From positions 3,100,001 to 3,164,000 of the forward strand of contig NZ_AP027041.1 in NCBI RefSeq assembly GCF_027924565.1: 64,000 nt of DNA. Reading direction: 5' to 3'. Both the position numbers and the translations under genes were made by a program. This document shows positions 7,493 through 48,739 of this stretch, piece after piece. A model generated the notes under the pieces. The model saw nothing but the letters and a program-made list of their open reading frames with translations, did no database searches and had not been told where the DNA came from. Position 1 is the first letter of the stretch, and every line of letters begins with the position of its first letter. This stretch comes from Lysobacter auxotrophicus. Its GTDB lineage: Bacteria; Pseudomonadota; Gammaproteobacteria; Xanthomonadales; Xanthomonadaceae.

Positions 7493-7582
7493 TTGTAGCC
7501 CGGGTAAGCGCAGCGCACCCGGGATCGACGTGTATCGACGCTGGAACGTGCCCCGGGTGCGCTGCGCTTACCCGGGCTACAA
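7493..7582. repeat. REP-like palindrome, copy 1 (perfect)
   Basis: Two perfectly inverted 31-nt arms (7493–7523 and 7552–7582), starting TTGTAGCCCGGGTAAGCG and separated by 28 bases. It lies between sodB and purK, which converge here. Diverged copies occur at 11728–11803, 35979–36062 and, as a single arm, 59577–59607. These resemble the short REP-type palindromes common in Xanthomonadaceae intergenic regions. No RAYT transposase gene is in the window. Confidence 0.8.
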
Positions 7583-7633
7583 CAGCGGGCGATCGTCATC
7601 CGGCGATGGCGCGAATCAGGAGACGCCGCCGCC

Positions 7634-8769
7634 TCAGCGCAGCGCCGCGATCACCGGCGCCACCTGCGCCTCGCGCCCCAGGGCGGCACCCACGCGCTCC
7701 AGCGACATCGCGAGCGCACCCGCCTCGTCGGCGCGCAGCGTGGCGTGGCCGACCTTGCGGCCGGCGCGCGGCAGCTTGCCGTAGTCGTGCCAGTGGCCGC
7801 CGGGTTCGCGCAGCATCGGCAGCGCGTCGGGCATCTGCCCGATCCAGTTGAGCATGCACGCCAGCCCGACCATGCGCGTGTCGCCGAGCGGCAGGCCGAG
7901 CACTGCGCGCAGGTGGTTCTGGAACTGGCTCGTCTCGCTGCCTTCGATCGTCCAGTGGCCGGAGTTGTGCACGCGCGGCGCAAGCTCGTTGGCGAGCAGT
8001 TCGCCATCGCGGCAGAACAGTTCGAGCGCGAACACCCCGACGTAATCCATCGCGTCGGCCAGGCGGCGCGCGTAGTCGTAGGCGATCTCGCCGAGCGCGG
8101 TGTCCACGCGCGCCGGCGCAAGACTCGCCGAGAGCACGCCATCGACGTGCCAGTTCTCGGTGAGCGGCCATGCGCGGAATTCGCCGTCGCGGCCGCGCAC
8201 GGCAACCACCGACAGCTCCCGCTGGAAGTGCACGAAGCCTTCCAGGATCAGCCCGACCTTCGGCGCCTGCGCACCGAGCGCGTCCCACGCGGCATCGGCA
8301 TCGGCCAGCGTCTTGATGCGGAACTGGCCCTTGCCGTCGTAGCCCAGGCGGCGCGTCTTGAGGATGCACGGCGTGCCGATCTCGGCCAGCGCGGCGTCGA
8401 GCTGATCGCGCGTGTCGATCGGCGCGAACGGCGGCACCGGGATGCCCAGTTCGCGGAACAGCGTCTTCTCGGCCAGGCGATCCTGCGCGGTCGCCAGCGC
8501 GCCCGGGTTCGGGAACACCGGCACGCGCTCGCTCAGCCACTGCGCCGATTCGGCCGGCACGTTCTCGAAATCGAACGTCGCCACGTCCACGCGCGATGCG
8601 AACTCGGTGAGCGTGGCGTCATCGCGGTAGTCGCCCACGACCATCGGCGCGAACTGCCCCGCGCACGCGTCGGCGACGTTGTCCATCACCAGGAAGCGCA
8701 GGCCGAGCGGTGCGCCCGACAGCGCGAGCATGCGCGCGAGCTGGCCGCCGCCGAGGATGCCGACCGTCG

Positions 8770-19838: not shown

Positions 19839-19864
19839 ATCGCCCCGCTTCCTGCCGGGGCGAT
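19839..19864. terminator. Hairpin between miaB and the convergent DUF5694 gene
   Basis: A perfect 9-bp stem (ATCGCCCCG/CGGGGCGAT) with an 8-nt loop, abutting the stop of the minus-strand gene. There is no T-run on either side, so termination is only probable. Confidence 0.5.
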
Positions 19865-20917
19865 CTACTTCAGGACCCGCTCGACGTCCACGATGTCCAC
19901 GCCCTGCAGCTGGCCCAGCCAGCTGTCGAACCACGGCTTGTGCCCGCTCCCGACGATCGACAGCACGCGCGCGCCGGGCTTTTCGCGGAAGGTCTCGCGG
20001 ATGTTGGCGACCATGCGCAGATTGCGGATTTCCCAACCGGCGACCCACACCTGCGGATAGCGTTCGGGGGACGACGACCCCATCGCCGCCACGATGTTGT
20101 GCCTGGCGCGGATCGCCAGCGATTCGGGGCGGTTCACCGCGCGATACAGCGACAGCATGTCGCCCGCCTCGACGAACGCCTTCTCGCGCTTCTCCACGGC
20201 GTCGAGCGCCGTGCGATCGGAATCCCATGCCGCCTGTATCGCCTTCCCGTACGCCTGCACGTCGGTGATGCGGGCGTTGTCGCCGGTGTGGTTGTCCACC
20301 GCGTGCACGCGCGGCAGGCCCAGTCGCGCGGCAAGTTGCGCGCCGAGCTGGTACCCCTCGTCGCGGCGCGTTTCCAGCTTGCGCAGCATCGCGACGAGCG
20401 CGTCGTCCAGGCCGTCGCCCGCGCGCCGTTCGGCTTCGGGCAGCTGCAGCCATTGCACGTACGCCGACGGACGATCGTTCGCTGCGAGGAAACGCGACGC
20501 CAGGTGCCTGCGTTGCGCGGGCGTGGGCTGCGCGGGCCAGGTCGCGAGCGTCTTCTCGACTTCCGCGATGGCCGCCGGAACGTCGAGGCCCGTCGCGTTT
20601 TTCGCCGCCTCCGTGCCCGCGCAATAGTTGGCGCCGTAGATCGCGACGTTGCGCGCGGCCGTGTCGCATTCCTCGCCCGGCAGCGTCTCGATGGTGACGA
20701 TCCCGGGCTTGAACGCGGCAAGGCGGTCGATCACCGGCTCGAGCGATGCCGGCGTGATCGACCCCGGCTGCTCGCCGAAGTGCACGGTCCCGAGCACCAG
20801 CACCTGCGCGCGCGGCCCCGCCGTGTCGCGGTCGAGCGTCGTCAGGTCGACCTGCGCGTGCGCCATCGCCGGCGCCAGCAGCATCGCGCCCGTCCATCGG
20901 ATCCATCGTCTGCTCAT
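19865..20917 (-). CDS. DUF5694 protein, secreted, TraB/GumN-like
   Basis: About 350 residues with a signal peptide ending in AMAHAQ. Features seen: VLVLGTVHF near residues 40–48, IETLPGEECDTA in the first half, and VLSIVGSGHKPWFDSWL near the C-terminus. This pattern resembles DUF5694 proteins and, more loosely, the TraB/GumN/Tiki group, in which conserved Glu/His residues may bind metal. No enzymatic role is established for DUF5694. The ATG at 20917 is preferred over the adjacent GTG because AGGAG lies five bases upstream. It is the first of a run of minus-strand accessory genes inserted between miaB and phoH. Confidence 0.75.
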   Translation of the reverse strand: MSRRWIRWTGAMLLAPAMAHAQVDLTTLDRDTAGPRAQVLVLGTVHFGEQPGSITPASLEPVIDRLAAFKPGIVTIETLPGEECDTAARNVAIYGANYCAGTEAAKNATGLDVPAAIAEVEKTLATWPAQPTPAQRRHLASRFLAANDRPSAYVQWLQLPEAERRAGDGLDDALVAMLRKLETRRDEGYQLGAQLAARLGLPRVHAVDNHTGDNARITDVQAYGKAIQAAWDSDRTALDAVEKREKAFVEAGDMLSLYRAVNRPESLAIRARHNIVAAMGSSSPERYPQVWVAGWEIRNLRMVANIRETFREKPGARVLSIVGSGHKPWFDSWLGQLQGVDIVDVERVLK

Positions 20918-20998
20918 CACGACTCCTGTCGGTGTTTGGGTGCGGAGGATTCTTGCAGACGACGACGCTCCACACCCGTGACATCGGACACAGGCGCG

Positions 20999-22630
20999 TC
21001 ATGCGTCGACGACGACGCGTTCGACGAGTCGGCCATGCTCGAGCGCGAGCCGGCGCGTGGGGGCAATCGCGTCGACGAACGCCGCATCGTGGCTGATCAC
21101 CACCAGCGCGCCGCGATACGCACGCAACGCGCGTTCGAGTTCGCGCACGGCCCACAGGTCGAGGTTGTTGGTCGGCTCGTCCAGCACGAGCAATTGCGGC
21201 GCGGGCGTCGCGTGCAACGTGCACGCCAGGTGGATGCGCAGGCGCTCGCCGCCGGACAATGCAGCGACGGGCCGGTGCATCGCCGTTCCGCGGAACAGCC
21301 AGCGCGCCAGCAGGTTCGCGCGTTCGACGTCGTCGAGCGCCGGCGTACATGCCGCGAAACATCCCATCACCGTCTCGCCCGCATCGAACGACTCCAGCCG
21401 TTGCGATAGCCGCGCGACACGACCCTCGCCGCGCCGGACCGACCCCGCATCCGGCGCGAGCTCACCGCTGACCAGCCGCGCCAGCGTGGTCTTTCCCGCG
21501 CCGTTCCCACCGGCGATGACGATGCGCTCGGGGCCGCGGATGTCCAGGTCGATGCCGCCGGGTGCGAACAGCGCCGCGCCGTCATGCACGACCTGCAGCG
21601 CTTGCCCGGAAAACAGCCATTTCCCCGGCGGAACCTGCGTGTCCGGCAACTCGATGAGAAGGTCCGGCGCTTCGCGGATGGACCGCCGCGCGACCGCCAG
21701 GCGCTGCGCCGCGTCGGCCGCGCGGGCCGCATGCACGTCGTCCGAGCGAGCGGCCGACACCTGCGCCGAGCGCGCGCGGTTCCCGGCGACGATGCGCGGC
21801 AATCCGGCATCGTCTACGCCGCGACGCGCGTTGGACGCGCGACGTTCGCTGCGCTCGCGCGACTGCTGGCGTTCGCGGTGCTCCCGCCTGGCGGCCTGCC
21901 GGAGGTTGCGCACGTCCTGCTCCGCGGCGTCCGCCTGCGCCCGCACGGCCGCTTCGTAGAACGTGAAGTTGCCGCCGTACATGCGCAGCGATTCGCGATC
22001 GAGTTCGGCGATCTGGTCCATGCGCTCCAGCAGCGCGCGATCGTGGCTGGCGACGAGCAGGCAGCCCGGCCAGTCGTCGATGAAGCGATGAAGCCGCTGC
22101 CGCGCGGCCGCGTCGAGGTGGTTCGACGGCTCGTCCAGCAGGAGGACGTCCGGCTGCTTCAGCCATTGCGCCGCGAGCCCGAGCGCCATGACTTCGCCGC
22201 CGCTTAGCGACGCCAGCGCGCGGTCGAGCGCGAGATGGTCGAGCCCGAACCTCGCCAGGCTCGCGCGCGTGCGCTCTTCCAGGTCCCACGCGTCGCCGAC
22301 CATGTCGAACAGCCCCTGCTCCATGCGCCCGGCCGCGATCGCGGCGAGTGCATCGAGCCGCTCGCGCACGCCCAGCACGTCGGCGACGCGCATCGCGTTG
22401 GGGAACACGAGGTCCTGCGGGAGCCAGGCCAGCGAGCCGGCGATCTCGACGTGCCCGGACGCGGGCGTCAGCGTGCCGGCGAGCAGGCGCAGCAACGTGC
22501 TCTTGCCGGCACCGTTGGGGGCGACGAGACCGGTGCGGCGCGCGTCGAGCGTGAAGGAAAGTCCATCGAAGACCGGCGTGCCATCCGGCCAGGCGAAACA
22601 AAGTTGCGAGACGCGTACGTGTGCGCGCAT
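20999..22630 (-). CDS. ABC-F family ATP-binding protein
   Basis: 543 residues with two ABC ATPase domains and no membrane segments, the ABC-F layout (translation factors and antibiotic-resistance ribosome-protection proteins). Walker A motifs: APNGAGKST at 37–45 and GGNGAGKTT in the second half. Signatures: SLSGGE and ALSGGE. Walker B: VLLLDEPSNHLD and LVLDEPTNNLD. The inter-domain linker is long, charged and arginine-rich (about 215–285: AARREHRERQQSRERSERRAS). It is not close enough to call EttA, Uup, YheS or YbiT. It acts in the cytosol, probably on ribosomes. The leader (22631–22800) shows no clear attenuator peptide. Confidence 0.88.
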   Translation of the reverse strand: MRAHVRVSQLCFAWPDGTPVFDGLSFTLDARRTGLVAPNGAGKSTLLRLLAGTLTPASGHVEIAGSLAWLPQDLVFPNAMRVADVLGVRERLDALAAIAAGRMEQGLFDMVGDAWDLEERTRASLARFGLDHLALDRALASLSGGEVMALGLAAQWLKQPDVLLLDEPSNHLDAAARQRLHRFIDDWPGCLLVASHDRALLERMDQIAELDRESLRMYGGNFTFYEAAVRAQADAAEQDVRNLRQAARREHRERQQSRERSERRASNARRGVDDAGLPRIVAGNRARSAQVSAARSDDVHAARAADAAQRLAVARRSIREAPDLLIELPDTQVPPGKWLFSGQALQVVHDGAALFAPGGIDLDIRGPERIVIAGGNGAGKTTLARLVSGELAPDAGSVRRGEGRVARLSQRLESFDAGETVMGCFAACTPALDDVERANLLARWLFRGTAMHRPVAALSGGERLRIHLACTLHATPAPQLLVLDEPTNNLDLWAVRELERALRAYRGALVVISHDAAFVDAIAPTRRLALEHGRLVERVVVDA

Positions 22631-22806
22631 GGGGTGACTCCATCGGGCCGGCGCGAAGGCGCGGCGATCAGAACGGAACCTGCGTCGCGCGAGGCGATGG
22701 CAGGTCGGCGGCTCTGCGGAAGGAGTCGTGCGATCACATGTGCGGGGCGGTCTCCGGATATGCGCGCCAGAACGGCGCGCTGAGATTGGGCGTGGCGCGC
22801 ATTATC

Positions 22807-22841
22807 GGCCGTGCGCCGCGCGATGTCGCGCGGGCACGGCC
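22807..22841 (-). terminator. Long GC-rich hairpin between amidohydrolase and ABC-F genes
   Basis: A 15-bp stem with a single bulged base and a 4-nt ATGT loop lies 31 bases beyond the amidohydrolase stop. It lacks a T-run. It may end the amidohydrolase transcript or shape the ABC-F leader, which starts in this gap. Confidence 0.5.
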
Positions 22842-22871
22842 GGAACGTTCAGCAGCGTGAGGAGGCGCTCC

Positions 22872-38495: not shown

Positions 38496-40577
38496 TTACT
38501 TGGCGACGACGTCCTGGCCGATGTAACGCTTCAGCCACGCGTTGACCGTATCGTGCCACTGCACCGAGTTGGCCGGCTTGAGCACCCAGTGGTTCTCGTC
38601 CGGGAAGTACAGGAACTGCGACGCGATGCCCTGGCGCTGCAGCGCGGTGAACACGCCGATGCCCTGCTCCACCGGGATGCGGAAGTCCTGCTGCCCGTGC
38701 ACGACGAGCATCGGCACGCGCCACTGCTTGACGTGGTTGACCGGGTTGAACTTCTCGTAGTTCGACGCCTTGTCGATGGCGTTGCCGCCCTGCTCCCAGT
38801 CGGTGAACCACTGTTCTTCCGTCGCGAAGCCCATCATGCGCTGGTCGAACACGCCGTCGTGGCTGACCAGGCACTTCCACGGCTGGTTCCAGTTGCCGGC
38901 AATCCAGTTGACCATGAAGCCACCGTAGCTCGCGCCCAGCGCGCAGGCCTTGTCGCCGTCGAGGAAGCCGTACTGCTTTTGCGCCGCGGCCCAGCCCTTC
39001 TGCAGGTCCTCCAGCGGACGGTCGCCCCAGTGCTGGCTGATCGCATCGGTGAACGCCTGGCCGTAACCGGTCGAGCCGTGGAAGTCGATCATCACCACCG
39101 CGTAGCCCTGGCCCGCGTACGTCTGCGGGTTCCAGCGGTAGCTCCAGCCGTTGCCGAAGCTGCCCTGCGGGCCGCCGTGGATGAGGAACGCGACCGGATA
39201 CTTCTTGCCTTCCTGGTAGTTCCACGGCTTGACGATGTAGCCGTGCACGGTGTCGCCGTTCCAGCCCTTGAAGTCGAACTGTTCGAAATCGCCGAACGCG
39301 ACGTCGGGCAGGCGCTCGCCGGTGGTCTGCGTGATCGCGCGCAGCGGCGCGGACGCATCGGCGCTCGTGGTGTAGAGCACGTCGCCGGTCTTGAGCGTGT
39401 TGCGCGTGAGCGCGAGCGTCGGACCGGCGAGATCGATGGACGAGATGCTGCCTTCGCCGACGAGCTTCTTCGCCTCGCCCGACGCGATGTCGACTGCGAA
39501 CAGCGGGTGCTCGCCCATGTCGGTGGCGGTGGTGTAGATCGTCCTGCCGTCATTGGCGAGCGTGATGCCATCGGCGGAACGGTCCCACTTCGGCGCGATC
39601 TCGCGCGCCTTGCCCGTCGCGAGGTCCATCGCCATCAGGCCGAAGCGGTCGGCTTCGAAACCCGGACGCTTCATCGCGCGATAGAACAGCGTCTTGCCGT
39701 CGCTGCTGAAGGTCGCGCCGGTGTCCCATGCGGGATTCGACGCGGTGAGGTTCTTCGCCGTGCCGGTGCCGTCGGCGTTGACCTGGTACAGGTCGAAGTT
39801 GGTCGACGTCGGCTCCTTCGCGTCGGCGATGCGTGCGCTGAACACCAGCGACTTGCCGTCGGGCGACCAGGTGTATTCGGTGCTGTCTCCGAACGGGCGC
39901 GACGGCACGTCGCCGTTGACGCCGCCGCTGACGAGCGTCGCGTTGCTCGCCGGCTTGTCGCCGAGCGTGGCCACGAACAGGCGGTTCAGGCGGCCGTCGT
40001 TCCACGCGTCCCAGTGGCGGATGAACATGCGGTCGAACACGACGCCCGTGTTCTTCTGCGCGCCGCGCTCGTCGAGCTGCTTCTTCGAGCAGGCGAGATC
40101 GCCCTTGCAGTCCGGGAAGACTTCCAGGTTGATCGCCACGCGCTTGCCGTCGGGCGAGAGCTTGTAGCCGCCGACGTCGGTGTTCAGCGCCGTCACCTGC
40201 TTGGGCGTGCCGCCGGCGGCGGGAATCGAGTACAGCTGCATCGAGCCGCCCTTCGCGCTGAGGAAGTAGACGGTCTTGCCGTCGGGCGAGAAGCCCGGCG
40301 AATTGACGTTCCAGCCGTCCGGCGTGAGGCGCTTGGGCGGCGCGGCATCGCGCGCCATCAGGTCTTCGATGTAAAGCGCGGTCGAGGACTTGTTGGCTGC
40401 CATATCGACCACGCGCTTGGCGAACACCACGCGGCGGCCGTCGGGCGACAGCGTCGGCGAGGACACGCGCTCGAGCGAAGCGAGGTCGCGCACGTCGAAG
40501 CCGCGCGCGGCCAGTGCGTTGGTGGAACCGCAGGCGAGCAGTAGCGCGAGCGGGAGGATGGCGTGGCGTGGCGTCAT
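38496..40577 (-). CDS. S9-family serine peptidase (dipeptidyl/acylaminoacyl peptidase type), secreted
   Basis: 693 residues. A signal peptide (about 1–23, ending STNALAA) is followed by a WD40-like beta-propeller (about 30–430, with repeated LSPDGRRVVF, SPDGKTVYF and SPDGKSLVF blades) and a C-terminal alpha/beta-hydrolase domain. The nucleophile is S550 in GASYGGFM; the Asp lies in VVHGQQDFRIPVEQG and the His in PDENHWVLKP. The enzyme should release dipeptides or acyl-amino acids in the periplasm. Start: the ATG directly before the signal peptide at 40577; the upstream frame is translated repeat DNA. It neighbours OPT and POT peptide transporters. Confidence 0.93.
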   Translation of the reverse strand: MTPRHAILPLALLLACGSTNALAARGFDVRDLASLERVSSPTLSPDGRRVVFAKRVVDMAANKSSTALYIEDLMARDAAPPKRLTPDGWNVNSPGFSPDGKTVYFLSAKGGSMQLYSIPAAGGTPKQVTALNTDVGGYKLSPDGKRVAINLEVFPDCKGDLACSKKQLDERGAQKNTGVVFDRMFIRHWDAWNDGRLNRLFVATLGDKPASNATLVSGGVNGDVPSRPFGDSTEYTWSPDGKSLVFSARIADAKEPTSTNFDLYQVNADGTGTAKNLTASNPAWDTGATFSSDGKTLFYRAMKRPGFEADRFGLMAMDLATGKAREIAPKWDRSADGITLANDGRTIYTTATDMGEHPLFAVDIASGEAKKLVGEGSISSIDLAGPTLALTRNTLKTGDVLYTTSADASAPLRAITQTTGERLPDVAFGDFEQFDFKGWNGDTVHGYIVKPWNYQEGKKYPVAFLIHGGPQGSFGNGWSYRWNPQTYAGQGYAVVMIDFHGSTGYGQAFTDAISQHWGDRPLEDLQKGWAAAQKQYGFLDGDKACALGASYGGFMVNWIAGNWNQPWKCLVSHDGVFDQRMMGFATEEQWFTDWEQGGNAIDKASNYEKFNPVNHVKQWRVPMLVVHGQQDFRIPVEQGIGVFTALQRQGIASQFLYFPDENHWVLKPANSVQWHDTVNAWLKRYIGQDVVAK

Positions 40578-40628
40578 GTGCGTCTCTCGATTGCATGCGG
40601 TCGCTGGAGCGAGCCGCGGGGTTTGATC

Positions 40629-40731
40629 GTCATCCCCGCGCAGGCGGGGATCCATGGACGTCATGCGCCTTGCCGCTGCGCGTCGTGGCGGATGAAGCAA
40701 CGTCCATGGAGTCCGCCTTCGCGGGAATGAC
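40629..40731. repeat. Inverted pair of 'GTCATCCCCGCG' repeats
   Basis: Arm 40629–40661 (GTCATCCCCGCGCAGGCGGGG, reading on to ATCCATGGACGT) and arm 40700–40731 (ACGTCCATGGAGTCCGCC, then TTCGCGGGAATGAC) are imperfect inverted copies separated by 38 bases. They fill the gap between the OPT gene stop and the S9 gene start and are related to the repeats at 42890–43207. Confidence 0.75.
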
Positions 40732-40748: not shown

Positions 40749-42692
40749 TCAGGTCGTCTTCAGTGCCGGATCGCTGTCGCGCACGCTGGTGCGATACAGC
40801 AGCCACGCAACCACGGCCAGGACCGCGAGGCCGACCCACGGGCCCAGGTGCGTACCCAGCGAGAGCACGTCGGCGCGACCGGACACGACGATCGGAATCG
40901 CGATGGCGATGCCCGTCAGCGCTTCGCCGGTGATCAGGCCCGCGGCGAACAGCGTGCCCGGACGATGCGCGCGATCGCGCTCGGCTTCGTCGCTGTCGAT
41001 CGACAGGCCGTGGCGACGCTCGACGATGTACGCGAGCAGGCCGCCGAGGAAAATCGGCACCATCAGTTCCAGCGGCAGGTAGATGCCGATGGCCGCGGCC
41101 AGCACCGGCACGCGGAAGTGCGACCTGCGCGACTTCAGCCATTCATCCAGCGCGATGACCAGCGCGCCGATGACGGCGCCGATGCCGATCATGTCCCACG
41201 GCAGCTTGCCGCCGAACAGGCCCTTGGCGACGGACGCCATCAGCGTGGCCTGCGGCGCGGACAGCGAGTTTGGATGCTGCGCGGTCGGCGGACCGATGCC
41301 GTAGGCCTGCGCGAGCAGGTTCAGCACCGGTGCCATGATCAGCGCGCACGAGAACGCGCCGATGCCGAGCATCAGCTGCTGCTTCCACGGCGTGGCGCCG
41401 ACGATGTAGCCGGCCTTGAGATCCTGCAGGTTGTCGCCGCCGACCGCTGCCGCGCAGCACACCACGGCGCCGATCATGATCGCGGCAACCGGGCCGATGG
41501 ACGAATCGCGGCCGAGCAGCAGCATCAGCACGAGCGAGGCGAACAGGATCGTCGCGATGGTGATGCCGGAAACGGGATTGTTCGAGGAACCCACCAGGCC
41601 GGCGAGGTACGCCGACACCGACACGAACAGGAAGCCGGCGACGATCATGATGATCGTCATCGTCAGGCTCACGCCCCAGGACTGCACGATCGCGTGGTAG
41701 AGCATCCACAGCGGGATCACGAACACGGCGAGCGCGACGAGCATCCACTTCATCGGAAGATCGCGTTCGGTTTCGGCAACGGCCAGGCCGCCGCCCTTGC
41801 GCGCCGCGGCCAGGCCGCTCTTGATGCCCGAAGCCAGCGAGTTGCGCAGCGAGAACAGCGTCCAGATGCCGCCGATCAGCATCGCGCCGACGCCGAGGTA
41901 GCGGATCTTCGCCGACCAGATCGCGCCGCCTGCATCAGCGGCGGACGCGCCGGCGATCTGCGCGGCCAGCGCCGGATCGGAGTTGAGGAAGAACGCGTGG
42001 TAGATCGGAATGGCGAACTGCCACGACAGGATCGAGCCGGACACCACCACGATGCCGATGTTCAGGCCGACGATGTAACCCACGCCCAGCAGCGCCGGCG
42101 ACAGGTTGGTGCCCATGTAGCCCAGGTACTTGCCGATGAAGCCCGAGGCGACGGCGTTGTCGGGGATCAGGCGCAGGCCGCTTTCCGCGGCAAGCTTCAC
42201 CAGCGCGCCGAGGCCACCGGCGACGCCGAGGATCTTCAGGCCCGGGCCGGGGTTCTCGCCGGCCTTGAGCACTTCGGCCGCGGCCTTGCCTTCGGGGAAC
42301 GGCAGCGGTTCCTCGACGATCATCGAGCGGCGCAGCGGCACCGAGAACAGCACGCCGAGCAGGCCGCCGAGACCGGCGATGCCGACGACCCACCAGTATT
42401 TGAAGTCGGGCCAGACGCCCATGATGATCAGCGCGGGGATCGTGAAGATCACGCCGGCGGCGATCGACGAGCCCGCCGAAGCGCCGGTCTGGACGATGTT
42501 GTTTTCCAGGATGCTGCCGCCGCCCAGCAGGCGCAGCACGCCCATGGAGACGACCGCGGCGGGAATCGCGGTGGCGATGGTCAGGCCCGCGAACAGGCCC
42601 AGGTATGCGTTGGCGGCGGAGAGGATCACCGCCAGCACGACGGCCAGCAGGACAGCACGGAAGGTCAATTGCGGCGTCGCGGGCGAGGCCAT
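40749..42692 (-). CDS. OPT family oligopeptide transporter
   Basis: 647 residues with about 14–16 membrane helices. Typical bacterial OPT stretches: the N-terminal LTFRAVLLAVVLAVILSAANAYLGLFAGLTIATAIPAAVVSMGVLRLL, ILENNIVQTGASAGSSIAAGVIFTIPALIIMG, VEEPLPFPEGKAAAEVLKAGE and GGDNLQDLKAGYIVGATPWKQQ. OPT carriers take up oligopeptides or metal–chelate complexes by proton symport. The start ATG at 42692 follows GGAG. A terminator-like hairpin lies about 105 bases upstream in its leader. It is between two S9 peptidase/POT genes, which favours peptides as substrate. Confidence 0.93.
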   Translation of the reverse strand: MASPATPQLTFRAVLLAVVLAVILSAANAYLGLFAGLTIATAIPAAVVSMGVLRLLGGGSILENNIVQTGASAGSSIAAGVIFTIPALIIMGVWPDFKYWWVVGIAGLGGLLGVLFSVPLRRSMIVEEPLPFPEGKAAAEVLKAGENPGPGLKILGVAGGLGALVKLAAESGLRLIPDNAVASGFIGKYLGYMGTNLSPALLGVGYIVGLNIGIVVVSGSILSWQFAIPIYHAFFLNSDPALAAQIAGASAADAGGAIWSAKIRYLGVGAMLIGGIWTLFSLRNSLASGIKSGLAAARKGGGLAVAETERDLPMKWMLVALAVFVIPLWMLYHAIVQSWGVSLTMTIIMIVAGFLFVSVSAYLAGLVGSSNNPVSGITIATILFASLVLMLLLGRDSSIGPVAAIMIGAVVCCAAAVGGDNLQDLKAGYIVGATPWKQQLMLGIGAFSCALIMAPVLNLLAQAYGIGPPTAQHPNSLSAPQATLMASVAKGLFGGKLPWDMIGIGAVIGALVIALDEWLKSRRSHFRVPVLAAAIGIYLPLELMVPIFLGGLLAYIVERRHGLSIDSDEAERDRAHRPGTLFAAGLITGEALTGIAIAIPIVVSGRADVLSLGTHLGPWVGLAVLAVVAWLLYRTSVRDSDPALKTT

Positions 42693-42795
42693 CGGCAGCT
42701 CCAGGCGGAGTGAACGGGGAAAACGGGAAAACGGGAAAACGGTGACGCGAATCGGGCAAAGCGCCCGGATCATCGCATCCGGCAGGCGCGCCTGT

Positions 42796-42826
42796 AAAAA
42801 CCCCGTCACGAATGGACAGGACGGGG
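42796..42826 (-). promoter_or_regulatory. Terminator-like hairpin in the leader of the OPT gene
   Basis: A perfect 7-bp stem (CCCCGTC/GACGGGG) with a 12-nt loop, followed on the minus strand by TTTTT. It faces into the OPT gene about 104 bases before its start, and no minus-strand gene lies upstream for it to terminate. It may act as an attenuator or stop antisense transcription from the repeat region. Confidence 0.5.
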
Positions 42827-42889
42827 CAAGCATGCGGCGGTGCAGCGATACGCGGTGGTATTGGTGGGATTCGGGCGCGCCCCGATTCC

Positions 42890-43374: not shown

Positions 43375-45144
43375 GTGGCCACCCTCTACCTCCCCATCGC
43401 CCGCGATCCGCGCGACGAACTCTTCGGCCACCCCAAAGGCGTCTACGTCTGCTTCTTCACCGAGATGTGGGAACGTTTCTCCTTCTACGGGATGAAGGCG
43501 CTGCTGCTGCTCTACCTGCTGCAACACCATCGCTTCGGCGATGGGCCGGGGTTGGACGTCCTCGGCGCATACGGCGGGCTCGTGTACTGCCTGCCGGTGG
43601 TGGGCGGCCTGCTCGCCGATCGCTTCCTGGGCATGCGCAAGGCCATCGTCTTCGGCGGACTGCTGCTCGTCGCCGGGCACCTGGGCATGGCGGTGGAGGG
43701 CCACGCGGCGACCGTCAGTGGCGGTCATGTGATGCGCGACGAGGGCGCGCTGCGCGTGTTCTATTTTTCACTGGCGCTGATCATTGTCGGCGTCGGCTTC
43801 CTCAAGCCGAACATTTCCACCATCGTCGGGCGCCTGTATCCCGAGAACGATCCGCGCCGCGATTCGGGTTTCTCGCTGTTCTACGCCGGCATCAACCTCG
43901 GCGCGCTGTTCTCGGCGCTGGTGTGCGGCTACCTGGGGCAGACGCTCGGCTGGAAGTGGGGCTTCGGCGCGGCGGGCATCGGCATGCTGCTGGGACTGGC
44001 GCAGTTCCTCTGGGGCCAGAAATATCTGCACGGCCACGCCGAGCCGCCGGATCCCGCGCGCCTGCGCGAGCGCGTTGCCGGCATGCCGCGCGAATGGGCG
44101 ATCTACCTGGGCTCGCTGCTCGCGCTGGTGCCGCTGGCGGCGCTGATGTGGGCCGTCGCGAACGGACGGTTCGCGCTCGGCGGCGAGGTCTCGCTCGCGT
44201 TGCTGCTCATGCTGCTGGTGATGCTCGCGGTGCTGGCGTGGTTCGCGTGGTTCCTGAAAACGCGCTGCACGCGCGAACAACGCCATCGCATGCTCGCGCT
44301 GATGGCGTTGATCTTCATGGCGCTGGTGTACTTCACGTTGTACGAGCAGACGTACGGTTCGTGGGTGACCTTCACCGATCGCCTGCTCACCAAGGATGTG
44401 TTCCCGTCGCTGGTGATCCGCGAAGGCACGCCGTGGCCGTGGTCGACGATCTCGCTGGTGCTCGCGCCCGCGGCGTTCGTCGCCGCGGCGGCGCTGTCGG
44501 ACCGCCGGCCGGATTCGCCGATGCCGAAAGTGCTGTTCGCCGGCGCGATCGTGCTGATGCTCGTCTTCCTCCTGCGCGATTGCGTGGTGTTGCCGCAGAC
44601 GGCCGGCTCGCTGACGTACCTCGGCGCGCTGTTCCTGGTGCTGCTCGCGCCGGTGTTCGCGCGCTTGTGGGATTCGCTCGACCGGCGCGGGCTGGATCCA
44701 TCGAAGCCGGCAAAATCCGCGCTGGGCCTGCTCTTCGCCGGCCTGAGCTTCGTGCCCATGGCGTGCGCGGCGCAGCACGCGGGCGACACGGGACAACTCG
44801 CAAGCGTGTGGTGGCTGGTGCTGGCCTACCTGGTGCTGGAAATCGGCGAGATGTGCCTGGCGCCGGTCGGCCTCGCGGCGGTGACGCAGCTGTCGGTGAA
44901 GAGCGTCATGAGCCTGATGATGGGCACGTGGTTCCTCGCGACCGCGTTCTCCGAAACACTGGCCGCGCTGTTCGGCAAGCTCGCCGCGATCGACATGCCC
45001 GAAGGCGCCGCGCTCGACTTCCCCGCGGCCGGCACGAAATACGCGGACCTGTTCTGGCTGATGACCGCCATCGGCGTCGGCTGGGCGCTGCTCGCCTTCA
45101 TCGCCGCGCCGATGCTGCGCCGGCTGATGCACGGCGTGAAGTGA
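43375..45144 (+). CDS. POT/PTR-family proton-dependent peptide transporter
   Basis: 589 residues, about 14 membrane helices. The N-terminal signature HPKGVYVCFFTEMWERFSFYGMKALLLLYLL contains the ExxERFxYY-type proton-coupling motif, and GVGFLKPNISTIVGRLY and FSLFYAGINLGALFSALVCGYLGQ are the PTR2 motifs. It imports di- and tripeptides with protons. The start is GTG at 43375 (GTGGCCACC), with a weak GCGGAA upstream. It is longer than E. coli DtpA (500 aa) because of extended mid-protein helices, as in other Xanthomonadaceae. It converges on an S9 peptidase gene. Confidence 0.94.
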   Translation: MATLYLPIARDPRDELFGHPKGVYVCFFTEMWERFSFYGMKALLLLYLLQHHRFGDGPGLDVLGAYGGLVYCLPVVGGLLADRFLGMRKAIVFGGLLLVAGHLGMAVEGHAATVSGGHVMRDEGALRVFYFSLALIIVGVGFLKPNISTIVGRLYPENDPRRDSGFSLFYAGINLGALFSALVCGYLGQTLGWKWGFGAAGIGMLLGLAQFLWGQKYLHGHAEPPDPARLRERVAGMPREWAIYLGSLLALVPLAALMWAVANGRFALGGEVSLALLLMLLVMLAVLAWFAWFLKTRCTREQRHRMLALMALIFMALVYFTLYEQTYGSWVTFTDRLLTKDVFPSLVIREGTPWPWSTISLVLAPAAFVAAAALSDRRPDSPMPKVLFAGAIVLMLVFLLRDCVVLPQTAGSLTYLGALFLVLLAPVFARLWDSLDRRGLDPSKPAKSALGLLFAGLSFVPMACAAQHAGDTGQLASVWWLVLAYLVLEIGEMCLAPVGLAAVTQLSVKSVMSLMMGTWFLATAFSETLAALFGKLAAIDMPEGAALDFPAAGTKYADLFWLMTAIGVGWALLAFIAAPMLRRLMHGVK

Positions 45145-45200: not shown

Positions 45201-47189
45201 CTACTTCGCGGCCTTGGCTTCGCCCGTGGCGGGGCTGGTTGTCGCGATCGAACCGCCGAGGCTGCGCGAGAGGAATGCGAGCAGGCGCGTGTAGAACTCC
45301 TGGCGGTGTTCCTGCGTGTAGAAGCCGTGCGCTTCGGTGTCGTAGTAGAGCGTCTCCACCGGCACGCCAGCCTTGCGCAACGAGGATTCCATCATCCGGC
45401 TGTGCTCGATCGGCGCCACGCGGTCCTTGCCGCCCGCCGCCAGGAACACCGGCACCTTGATGCGATCGGCGATGCGGTTCGGCGAAACGTCGCCCAGTTC
45501 GGCCGGATCGCCGACCCATTCGCGCAGCCAGTTGCCGGAACGGCGGCTTTCGCGCGTGTCGTCGGCGATCATTTTCGGCAGGTCGTACACACCGACGTAG
45601 CCCACCGCGCACTTGTACAGGCCCGGTTCCTTCGCCACGCCCATCAGCGACGCATAGCCGCCGTAGCTGGCGCCGTACATGCAGATGCGGCCCTTGTCGG
45701 CGACGCCTTCGGCGATGGCCCAGCGCGTGGCATCGGTGAGGTCGTCCTGCATGCGGCCGCCCCACTCGCGCGCGCCGGCGCCGATGTAGGACTTGCCGTA
45801 GCCGGCCGAGCCGCGATAGTTCAGCTGCAGCACGGCGTAACCGGCCGATGCGAGCAGCTGCGCGTCCGAATCGAAGCCCCAGGAATCCTGCACGTCGATG
45901 GGACCGCCGTGCGGCATCACCACCAGCGGCAGGTTCTTTCCGCTGCTGCCGCTGGGCGTGGTCAGGAACCCGTGCAGGGTCATGCCATCGCGCGCCTTGA
46001 GTTCGATCGGCCTGGAGGTGGCCTGCTTCTGCGGATCGAACCACTCGCGCTTGGCCAGCACGTGCGCGGGCTTCTTCGCCTGCGTGTCGAAGAGGTAGAA
46101 GTCGCCGGGGTTCTGGTCGCTGAACACCTGGACCAGTGCAAGCGACCCGTCGTTCGTCTGCGAGGTGACCACGACGCCCTGCCCCTGGAACGCGGCTTCC
46201 AGGCTCTTCTGCAGGCGCGCTTCAGGCGCTTGGCTGTCGAAGAACGCCGAGTGCGGACGGCCGTCGGCGAAGTACGCACCGATGGGCACGCGCGTGTTGT
46301 TGCGATAGATGATGCGCGCCGGATCGGCCTTGTCGTCGCGCAGCACCTGCGTGCGCTGGCGCGAGGCGAGGTTCATCGCGACGATCGCATCGGGACCGCG
46401 CGGCTGCTCGACCTGCAGGTAGACCGTCTGGTTGTCGGCGGAGAACCCGATCGGCACCTCGAACAGGCCGTCCTTCTCGATGGTCAGCAGGTCCCACTCC
46501 GCGCCATCGCCGGTGCGGTAGTACAGATGCCGGATGTTGTCGGAGTCCGAGCCCCACGTGAACCGCACCACGCCCGCGTTGTCGGCGGCGAAACGTGCGT
46601 TGCGAATCGGCGCGATCGCAACGCGCCGCATCCGGCCGCTGTAGGCGTCGAGGCGTTCGGCGGTGGAACGCGGGTCCTGCGAGTAGGGCTGCGCCGAGAT
46701 CAGCGTCGTGCGACCGTCATCGGCGATCGGCGTCGGCACGAGGCGGGCCCAGACCCGGTCGTTGCCCTTCTTCGGCTTGATGGTCGTGCCAAGGCCGCCG
46801 TCCTGCGTGCGGTAGCCGATCAACATCTCGGCCTTGCTGCCGTCGGCGTTGATGGCGAACAGCTCGCCGGTGAGCACCGGCTCGTCGAGCGAACCGAACT
46901 TCTCCGCGGCGCTGAGCACCACGCGCTCCGGGTTGATCCACTCGAAGTCGGCGACGTAGTTGTCGCGCGGCATCTTGAAGGTGCCGGTGAGCTTGTTGGT
47001 CCCGCGCTCGATCACTGCCAGGACGCTGCGATCCTCCATGGGCACCGTCGCAGCCAGGTACTGTCCGCCTGGCGAGATCTTCAGATCGGTGAACTGGTCC
47101 TAGCGCGTGTAGGCCGACACGTCGACACCGTCGGCCGCTGCATTGAGCGACAGCGCCATGAGCGCGGCCGCGAGCAGAAGTTTCTTCAT
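45201..47189 (-). pseudogene. S9-family prolyl oligopeptidase-like gene interrupted by an in-frame TAG after the signal peptide
   Basis: From the ATG at 47189 the frame encodes a signal peptide (MKKLLLAAALMALSLNAAA) and then DGVDVSAYTR, meets TAG at codon 30 (47100–47102), and continues in the same frame as DQFTDLKISPGGQYLAATVP and the rest of a full-length S9 peptidase to 45201. The catalytic core is intact: Ser at codon 508 (GASYGGY), Asp in AAGGKDRVAPIEH, His in DTEAHGFYTQEH. One base change would restore a 662-codon exported enzyme. As it stands, translation could only restart at an internal GTG/ATG (47045 or 47039), yielding a 614-aa protein without a signal peptide. Recent nonsense mutation, sequencing error or stop readthrough are all possible. 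Confidence 0.88.
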
Positions 47190-47289: not shown

Positions 47290-48174
47290 TCAGTCCAGCG
47301 TTCGTGCCAACGCGTCGCGCCAATCCGGCAAATCCAGCGCGTATTCCTCGCGCAGGCGGGTGGTGTCCAGCACGGAGTACGCAGGCCGGACAGCGCGCGT
47401 GGGGTAATCGGCGGTCGCGATCGGGGTGACGACGGGGCGCCGCGCGATCAGGCCGCGCTGGCTCGCCGCGTCGAAGATCGCGTCGGCGAAGCCGTGCCAC
47501 GTCGTCTGTCCGCTGGCGACCAGGTGACGGATACCCGATGCCGTGATGCCCTGGCGCAGGATGGCCGCCGTGGCATCGGCGATCAGCCACGCGGGCGTGG
47601 GGCAGCCGTGCTGGTCGGCGACCACGCGAAGTTCGTCGCGTTCGGCGCCCACGCGCAGCATCGTGCGCAGGAAATTGTGGCCGTGGAGCCCGTACACCCA
47701 CGCGGTGCGCAGGATCAGGTGTCGTGCGCCGCTGCGTTCGATGGCCACTTCGCCATCGCGCTTGCTGTGTCCGTACACGCCGAGCGGGCTCGTCGGATCG
47801 TCTTCACGATACGGGCGCGAGCCGCCGCCATCGAAAACGTAATCGGTCGAGTAATGCACGAGCGGGACGCCGGCCTCGGCGCACGCAAGCGCGAGGCGCT
47901 CCGTGGCGCGTGCGTTGATGCGGAACGCGACCTCGGGTTCGTCCTCGGCACGATCCACGGCCGTGTATGCGGCCGCATTGACGACCACGTCGGGCCGCAC
48001 GCGTTCGACGAACGGCGCGATGGCGTCCAGTTCCGCCAGATCAAGGGTTTCGCAGGCGACGTCGTCGTCCAGACGTCCGCTGCGCGTGGTCGCGACCACG
48101 TCGCCCAGTGGCGCCAGGCTGCGCCGCAACGCATGGCCGACCTGACCGTTCGCGCCAACCAGCAGCAGTCTCAC
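47290..48174 (-). CDS. rfbD: dTDP-4-dehydrorhamnose reductase
   Basis: 294 residues. It reduces dTDP-4-keto-L-rhamnose to dTDP-L-rhamnose with NAD(P)H. The Rossmann motif LLVGANGQVGHAL opens the protein, followed by NAAAYTAVDRAEDEP, the active-site VHYSTDYVFDG and YGHSKRDGE. The GTG at 48174 is chosen; it begins VRLLLVGANG 8 bases after the rfbC stop. It is the last gene of rfbBACD. Confidence 0.95.
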   Translation of the reverse strand: MRLLLVGANGQVGHALRRSLAPLGDVVATTRSGRLDDDVACETLDLAELDAIAPFVERVRPDVVVNAAAYTAVDRAEDEPEVAFRINARATERLALACAEAGVPLVHYSTDYVFDGGGSRPYREDDPTSPLGVYGHSKRDGEVAIERSGARHLILRTAWVYGLHGHNFLRTMLRVGAERDELRVVADQHGCPTPAWLIADATAAILRQGITASGIRHLVASGQTTWHGFADAIFDAASQRGLIARRPVVTPIATADYPTRAVRPAYSVLDTTRLREEYALDLPDWRDALARTLD

Positions 48175-48181
48175 GACGGCC

Positions 48182-48739
48182 TCACGGTGCGTAGACCGGC
48201 AGCCGGTCCTCGGGGATTTCGTCCAGGAACGGCGCGCGCGCGTCCTTGTCCGAAAGCGTGACGTCCGACATCGGCCAATCGACCGCGAGCGTGGCATCGT
48301 TCCAGCGGACGGCCGCATCGGCGGACGCATCGTAGGTCTGCGTGCACAGGTACGTGAACACCGCGCGCTCGCTGAGGGTGACGAACCCGTGCGCGAAGCC
48401 TTCCGGAATCCAGAAATGGCGCTTGTTCTCGGCGCTGAGCAGCACGCCCGTCCAGCGGCCGAAAGTAGGCGAACCGCGGCGGATGTCGACCGCCACGTCC
48501 CAGACCTCGCCTTCGATCACGGAGACGTACTTGCCCTGCGGCCGGGGCCACTGGTAATGGAGACCGCGCAACACGCCGCGTCGCGACGACGACACGTTGC
48601 CCTGCACGAACGTCGGCTTGATGCCGGCGTCGCCGAGTTTGTCGAGGTTGAACGATTCGAAGAAGAAGCCGCGATCGTCGCCGAAGACACGCGGCTCGAT
48701 CACCACGCAACCCGGCAGGTCGGTTTCGATGATCTTCAC
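48182..48739 (-). CDS. rfbC: dTDP-4-dehydrorhamnose 3,5-epimerase
   Basis: 185 residues, a cupin-fold epimerase. Key segments: the start [47 protein letters not shown] with the catalytic His, and [25 protein letters not shown]. Its ATG overlaps the rfbA stop (ATGA-type, 48736–48739). It catalyses the third step of dTDP-rhamnose synthesis. Confidence 0.96.

What the first reader, a model, noticed from the sequence alone, without database searches (positions are those of the whole stretch)
45201..47189. In-frame TAG separates the signal peptide from an otherwise intact S9 peptidase
The frame from 47189 reads as a perfect exported S9 peptidase except for TAG at codon 30 (47100–47102), just after the mature N-terminus begins. 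No frameshift is present and the catalytic Ser, Asp and His are intact, so the lesion looks recent. Either the enzyme is lost, a cytosolic 614-residue form is made by restart at 47045, the stop is read through, or the base is a sequencing error. The gene neighbours two peptide transporters and another S9 peptidase, which could buffer its loss.
Basis: seen in the sequence. Interest (0 to 1): 0.7.

Follow-up and report, generated by a model that had tools for sequence, protein, structure and literature searches.

The report
Freshly broken exported peptidase gene
A soil-type bacterium's gene for an exported protein-cutting enzyme carries a stop signal just after its export tag, most likely an ordinary and recent loss of a gene that some related bacteria have also lost.

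Summary
The minus-strand frame from 47189 has TAG at codon 30 (47102-47100), after a signal peptide and before an otherwise intact S9 peptidase. The gene lies beside rmlD in 12 of 12 genomes of the genus, own included; its nearest relatives have Lys or Arg at that codon. It is the only one of 49 rough gene calls in the window where I found a real in-frame stop against two relatives. The stop is young or unreal: dN/dS on this branch is 0.13, interval about 0.085-0.20. No amber-suppressor tRNA was found and release factor 1 is intact. The 614-residue restart has a poor ribosome-binding site and would lack invariant residues. Lysobacter soli broke the gene separately by deletion; 5 of 35 named relatives are broken at different places. 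With one method, at least 4 of 108 genomes are broken, against 0 of 150 for the neighbouring S9 gene. Verdict: an ordinary recent nonsense pseudogene of a dispensable exported peptidase. An assembly error is not excluded.

The parts
47103..47189 (-). Codons 1-29: signal peptide and first residues of the mature protein, with a strong ribosome-binding site upstream
   Evidence: Shine-Dalgarno -7.9 kcal/mol; conserved in relatives
47100..47102 (-). In-frame TAG at codon 30; the nearest relatives have a sense codon for Lys or Arg
47046..47099 (-). Codons 31-48: conserved stretch with invariant S39, P40, G42, which a restart at 47045 would lack
   Evidence: 22 sequences; 0 of 18 residues differ from Lysobacter soli, 3 of 18 from G007
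45201..47045 (-). 614-codon open frame from GTG (proposed restart), holding most of the enzyme
   Evidence: weak Shine-Dalgarno -1.5 kcal/mol
45252..45881 (-). Peptidase_S9 catalytic domain with Ser, Asp and His in place
43375..45144 (+). Neighbour: oligopeptide:H+ symporter (POT), intact
40749..42833 (-). Neighbour: OPT oligopeptide transporter, intact
38496..40700 (-). Neighbour: second S9 peptidase (best NCBIfam model Dpp5, below its cut-off); matched in 150 of 150 family genomes
47290..48330 (-). Upstream neighbour: dTDP-4-dehydrorhamnose reductase (rmlD), beside the S9 gene in 12 of 12 genus genomes

Best explanation
A recent nonsense mutation has inactivated an accessory, exported S9 (prolyl-oligopeptidase-type) peptidase. 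Shown: the stop; the conserved locus; sense codons at that place in relatives; low dN/dS on the branch; separate breakages of the same kind of gene in other species; no suppressor tRNA found. Inferred: ribosomes start at 47189, make a 29-residue signal-peptide fragment and stop, so no active exported enzyme is made; and the loss is tolerated because other peptidases and peptide uptake overlap with it.
For: Stop confirmed. Gene beside rmlD in 12 of 12 genus genomes, own included. Nearest relatives have a sense codon. Branch dN/dS 0.128; twice the log-likelihood drop passes 3.84 between 0.08 and 0.09 and between 0.19 and 0.21; G007 branch 0.080, L. soli branch 0.050, rest 0.216. If the value before the lesion was 0.05-0.08, at most about 13-15% of the branch was neutral. 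L. soli broken independently: about 174 codons missing and the frame changed. 5 of 35 named relatives broken (L033, L054, L057, L062, L066). In 150 family genomes at least 4 of the 108 with a match are broken (own TAG, G003, G031, G132), against 0 of 150 for the neighbouring S9 gene and no stop in 87 for the symporter; Fisher p = 0.009 for 4 of 108 against 0 of 237, 0.03 against 0 of 150. Release factor 1 intact, no CTA anticodon seen.
Against: No reads, no second strain of the species and no expression data, so an assembly error or a rare allele cannot be told from a fixed mutation. The low dN/dS fits a gene that still works as well as a young pseudogene. Several broken relatives are draft assemblies in which some lesions may be errors. 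The second-species comparison mixes orthologues and paralogues.
Confidence: 0.72

Rival explanations
1. The TAG is an error of the assembly and the gene is intact in the living strain.
For: Everything else in the gene is intact and under purifying selection; no reads were available.
Against: The genome is one contig, 100% complete. No other of 49 rough gene calls in the window showed a real in-frame stop against two relatives, so the error background looks low. Other relatives also have broken copies.
Confidence: 0.2
2. Ribosomes restart at GTG 47045, ATG 47039 or further down and make a cytosolic, shortened enzyme.
For: The frame is open. Reinitiation after an early nonsense codon is known in bacteria (recalled). 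ATG 47039 (-3.4) pairs slightly better than the random median (-2.4), and GTG codons 90-91 (46922, 46919) pair at -5.8.
Against: GTG 47045 pairs at -1.5 against -7.9 at the real start. Every restart product would lack invariant S39, P40 and G42, those from codons 90-91 far more. No fold model could be made.
Confidence: 0.05
3. The stop is read through and a full-length exported enzyme is made at a low level.
For: Purifying selection on the branch.
Against: No CTA anticodon seen among 50 tRNA matches, release factor 1 intact, TAG ends 8 of 49 rough gene calls in the window, and no relative in which codon 30 could be read has a stop there.
Confidence: 0.03

Closest known systems
   Same: Same locus, 87% identity over residues 1-614 after the stop, very similar signal peptide
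   Different: Sense codon at position 30
   Same: Same locus, gene broken; remaining pieces 86% and 89% identical
   Different: Sense codon at position 30; about 174 codons missing in the middle and the frame changed
Acylaminoacyl peptidases of known structure (5l8s, 1ve6)
   Same: Catalytic alpha/beta-hydrolase part (sequence match 1.1e-23 and 2.8e-22)
   Different: Best stretch covers only residues about 361-612 after the stop; substrate of the window enzyme unknown
Bacterial pseudogenes made by a premature stop (review PMC11078800; passages seen)
   Same: A native gene disrupted by a stop codon
   Different: No difference of kind

Membership tests
Peptidase family S9 (Pfam PF00326) | Domain score above curated cut-off | tested here: met
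   148.1 bits against 22.6
Peptidase family S9 (Pfam PF00326) | Catalytic Ser, Asp, His present | tested here: met
   S478, D559, H591 (counted after the TAG) invariant among 22 sequences; the catalytic assignment is recalled
Peptidase family S9 (Pfam PF00326) | N-terminal beta-propeller | not tested
Peptidase family S9 (Pfam PF00326) | Peptidase activity | not testable with these tools
   Needs an assay
Dipeptidyl-peptidase Dpp5 (NCBIfam NF053518) | Score above curated cut-off | tested here: not met
   68.6 bits against 900
Recent nonsense pseudogene | Premature stop where relatives have a sense codon | tested here: met
Recent nonsense pseudogene | Little or no relaxed evolution yet | tested here: met
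   dN/dS 0.128 on the branch; this fits a working gene too
Recent nonsense pseudogene | No functional product | not testable with these tools
   Needs proteomics or an assay
Stop-codon read-through or recoding | Suppressor tRNA or loss of release factor 1 | tested here: not met
Stop-codon read-through or recoding | Stop conserved at the same codon in relatives | tested here: not met
   No other locus of L001-L069 in which codon 30 could be read has a stop there (not readable in L016 and L063)

The most novel reading that the evidence does not exclude
Loss of this exported peptidase is favoured rather than merely tolerated: Xanthomonadaceae lineages keep breaking it independently (amber stop here, deletion in L. 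soli, stops or frameshifts elsewhere) because the enzyme is a liability under some condition, for example as a point of attack for rivals' peptides or phages, or in culture.
Probability: 0.08. Interest if true: 0.45.

Novelty: new member of a known kind. Interest (0 to 1): 0.15.

Why it matters
Mainly for annotation: the gene should be marked as a probable pseudogene, not as a 614-residue cytosolic peptidase. A minor point of interest is that this gene seems to be broken more often across the family than its neighbours, so comparing strains that have it and lack it could show what the enzyme is for.

Tried and rejected
Amber suppression or a changed code: rejected. A natural downstream start in relatives: rejected, the nearest relatives carry the full signal peptide. 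A lesion shared with Lysobacter soli: rejected, L. soli has a sense codon at 30 and the window lacks the deletion. An old pseudogene: rejected by dN/dS. The tree near the window genome is unresolved (support 43 and 60), so the codon model used a polytomy of G000, G003 and G007 with an assumed grouping of the other four. Stops at residues 621-622 in L037, L040 and L045 are natural gene ends and were not counted. The 35 named relatives are L031-L060, L062 and L066-L069; L061, L064, L065 (38-40% identity, no stop), L063 (partial contig) and L070-L110 (distant or partial) were left out; with L061, L064 and L065 the count would be 5 of 38. The match list was cut short, so 4 of 108 is a minimum. In one search nine of the 87 symporter matches are in pieces (G005, G059, G070, G096, G102, G118, G119, G124, G139); I counted them as unbroken because each piece lies in a longer open frame. 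One search (listing only) did not identify the strain; searches gave listings; passages were seen (nothing used).

Full report
What was checked. The minus-strand frame from 47189 to 45201 translates as a signal peptide, TAG at codon 30 (47102-47100), then 632 open residues and a natural TAG. The open part is a Peptidase_S9 protein with Ser, Asp and His conserved in 22 sequences.

Is it a real gene with a real stop? The window is G000:C1:3100001-3164000 of a 4,155,451-base single-contig genome; it is Lysobacter-like because its nearest named relatives are L. changpingensis and L. soli. The gene is found in 12 of 12 genomes of the genus, own included, beside rmlD in each; the transporters are next to it in most (no POT match in G001; the OPT match is only 36-37% in G005, G006 and G010). 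Close relatives carry a similar signal peptide and a sense codon for Lys or Arg where the window has TAG. I made 49 rough gene calls for the window and compared them both ways with the matching stretches of G007 and G003. The other stops seen in window sequence lie in over-long starts, at a gene end, or in one call that looks like a wrong frame (G007 stretch 7496-8581; inference). The G003 stretch starts at window 6867, some calls had no match, and a few partial matches were not resolved. Within these limits the S9 gene is the only real in-frame stop.

How old is it? A codon model with seven genus members gave dN/dS 0.128 on the window's branch, 0.050 for G003 (L. soli), 0.080 for G007 and 0.216 elsewhere. 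Profile likelihood puts the window's value at about 0.085-0.20. Six neighbouring genes have 0.027-0.137 on the same branch. If the value before the lesion was 0.05-0.08 and drift is neutral at 1, at most about 13-15% of the branch was neutral. So the stop is young, or the gene still works, or the base is an error.

Does the cell get round the stop? Fifty tRNA matches were found. ARAGORN shows no CTA anticodon; two degenerate tandem tRNA-like matches at G000:C1:3825628-3825766 were read by eye and have none either. Release factor 1 is intact. TAG ends 8 of 49 rough gene calls. Restart: GTG 47045 pairs with the anti-Shine-Dalgarno at -1.5 kcal/mol and ATG 47039 at -3.4, against -7.9 at 47189; 400 random positions have a median of -2.4. 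GTG codons 90-91 pair better (-5.8) but would cost 89 or more residues. S39, P40 and G42, invariant in 22 sequences down to 26% identity, lie between the stop and the first restart, so a restart product would probably not fold normally (inference).

Is the gene lost elsewhere? L. soli lacks about 174 codons in the middle, with a frame change, but has a sense codon at position 30, so the two losses are independent. Among 35 named relatives (L031-L060, L062, L066-L069) five are broken at different places: a stop in Vulcaniibacterium thermophilum (L033), a stop at the nucleophile motif in Xanthomonas sp. NCPPB 1128 (L054), the deletion in L. soli (L057), and frameshifts in X. arboricola pv. guizotiae (L062) and Pseudoxanthomonas sp. 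NC8 (L066). In 150 family genomes, 108 have a match at E 1e-120 or better; at least four of these are broken: the window's own TAG, which lies just outside that query; G003, whose better match in that list is another copy; G031, with an internal stop; and G132, split over two frames. The neighbouring S9 gene is matched in 150 of 150 with no stop and nearly full length; the symporter in 87 of 150 with no stop, nine of them in pieces within longer open frames. Fisher p is 0.03 for 4 of 108 against 0 of 150, and 0.009 against 0 of 237 pooled. Against over-reading this: several broken copies are in draft assemblies, G003 and L057, and G031 and L033, appear to be the same genomes (equal contig lengths), the 108 include paralogues, and the list was cut short.

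Verdict. Most likely an ordinary, recent nonsense pseudogene of an accessory exported peptidase (0.72), with an assembly error as the main rival (0.2). Buffering by other peptidases is plausible: the genome has 17 S9-domain matches including this gene, 16 marked over the Pfam cut-off and nine above 130 bits; it was not tested.

Noticed in passing
G000:C1:3825628-3825766 (outside the window; L196:129-267): Two tandem, degenerate tRNA-like elements, the first with a four-base anticodon loop; an overlapping stretch gives a sub-threshold match to the YrlA Y-RNA-like family (29.4 bits, cut-off 69).
   Followed up: partly
window 19842-22870: This stretch, with two rough gene calls (19865-20920, 20999-22630), does not align with the G007 stretch but does align in G003: an insertion or loss between close relatives.
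   Followed up: no
L178:10272-17387 (G003): About 7 kb of extra DNA in Lysobacter soli between the matches to window 38388 and 38514, beside the second S9 peptidase, with three rough gene calls that have no match in the window stretch.
   Followed up: no
window 40749-42833: In G005, G006 and G010 the best match to the OPT transporter near this locus is only 36-37% identical, as if replaced by another OPT gene.
   Followed up: no
window 43375-45144: In nine of 87 family genomes the POT symporter matches only in pieces within a longer open frame, suggesting an extra inserted or diverged segment near residues 250-345.
   Followed up: no
L054 and L062: A relative of the same S9 peptidase is broken at or beside its nucleophile motif in Xanthomonas sp. 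NCPPB 1128 (stop) and X. arboricola pv. guizotiae CFBP 7408 (frameshift).
   Followed up: partly
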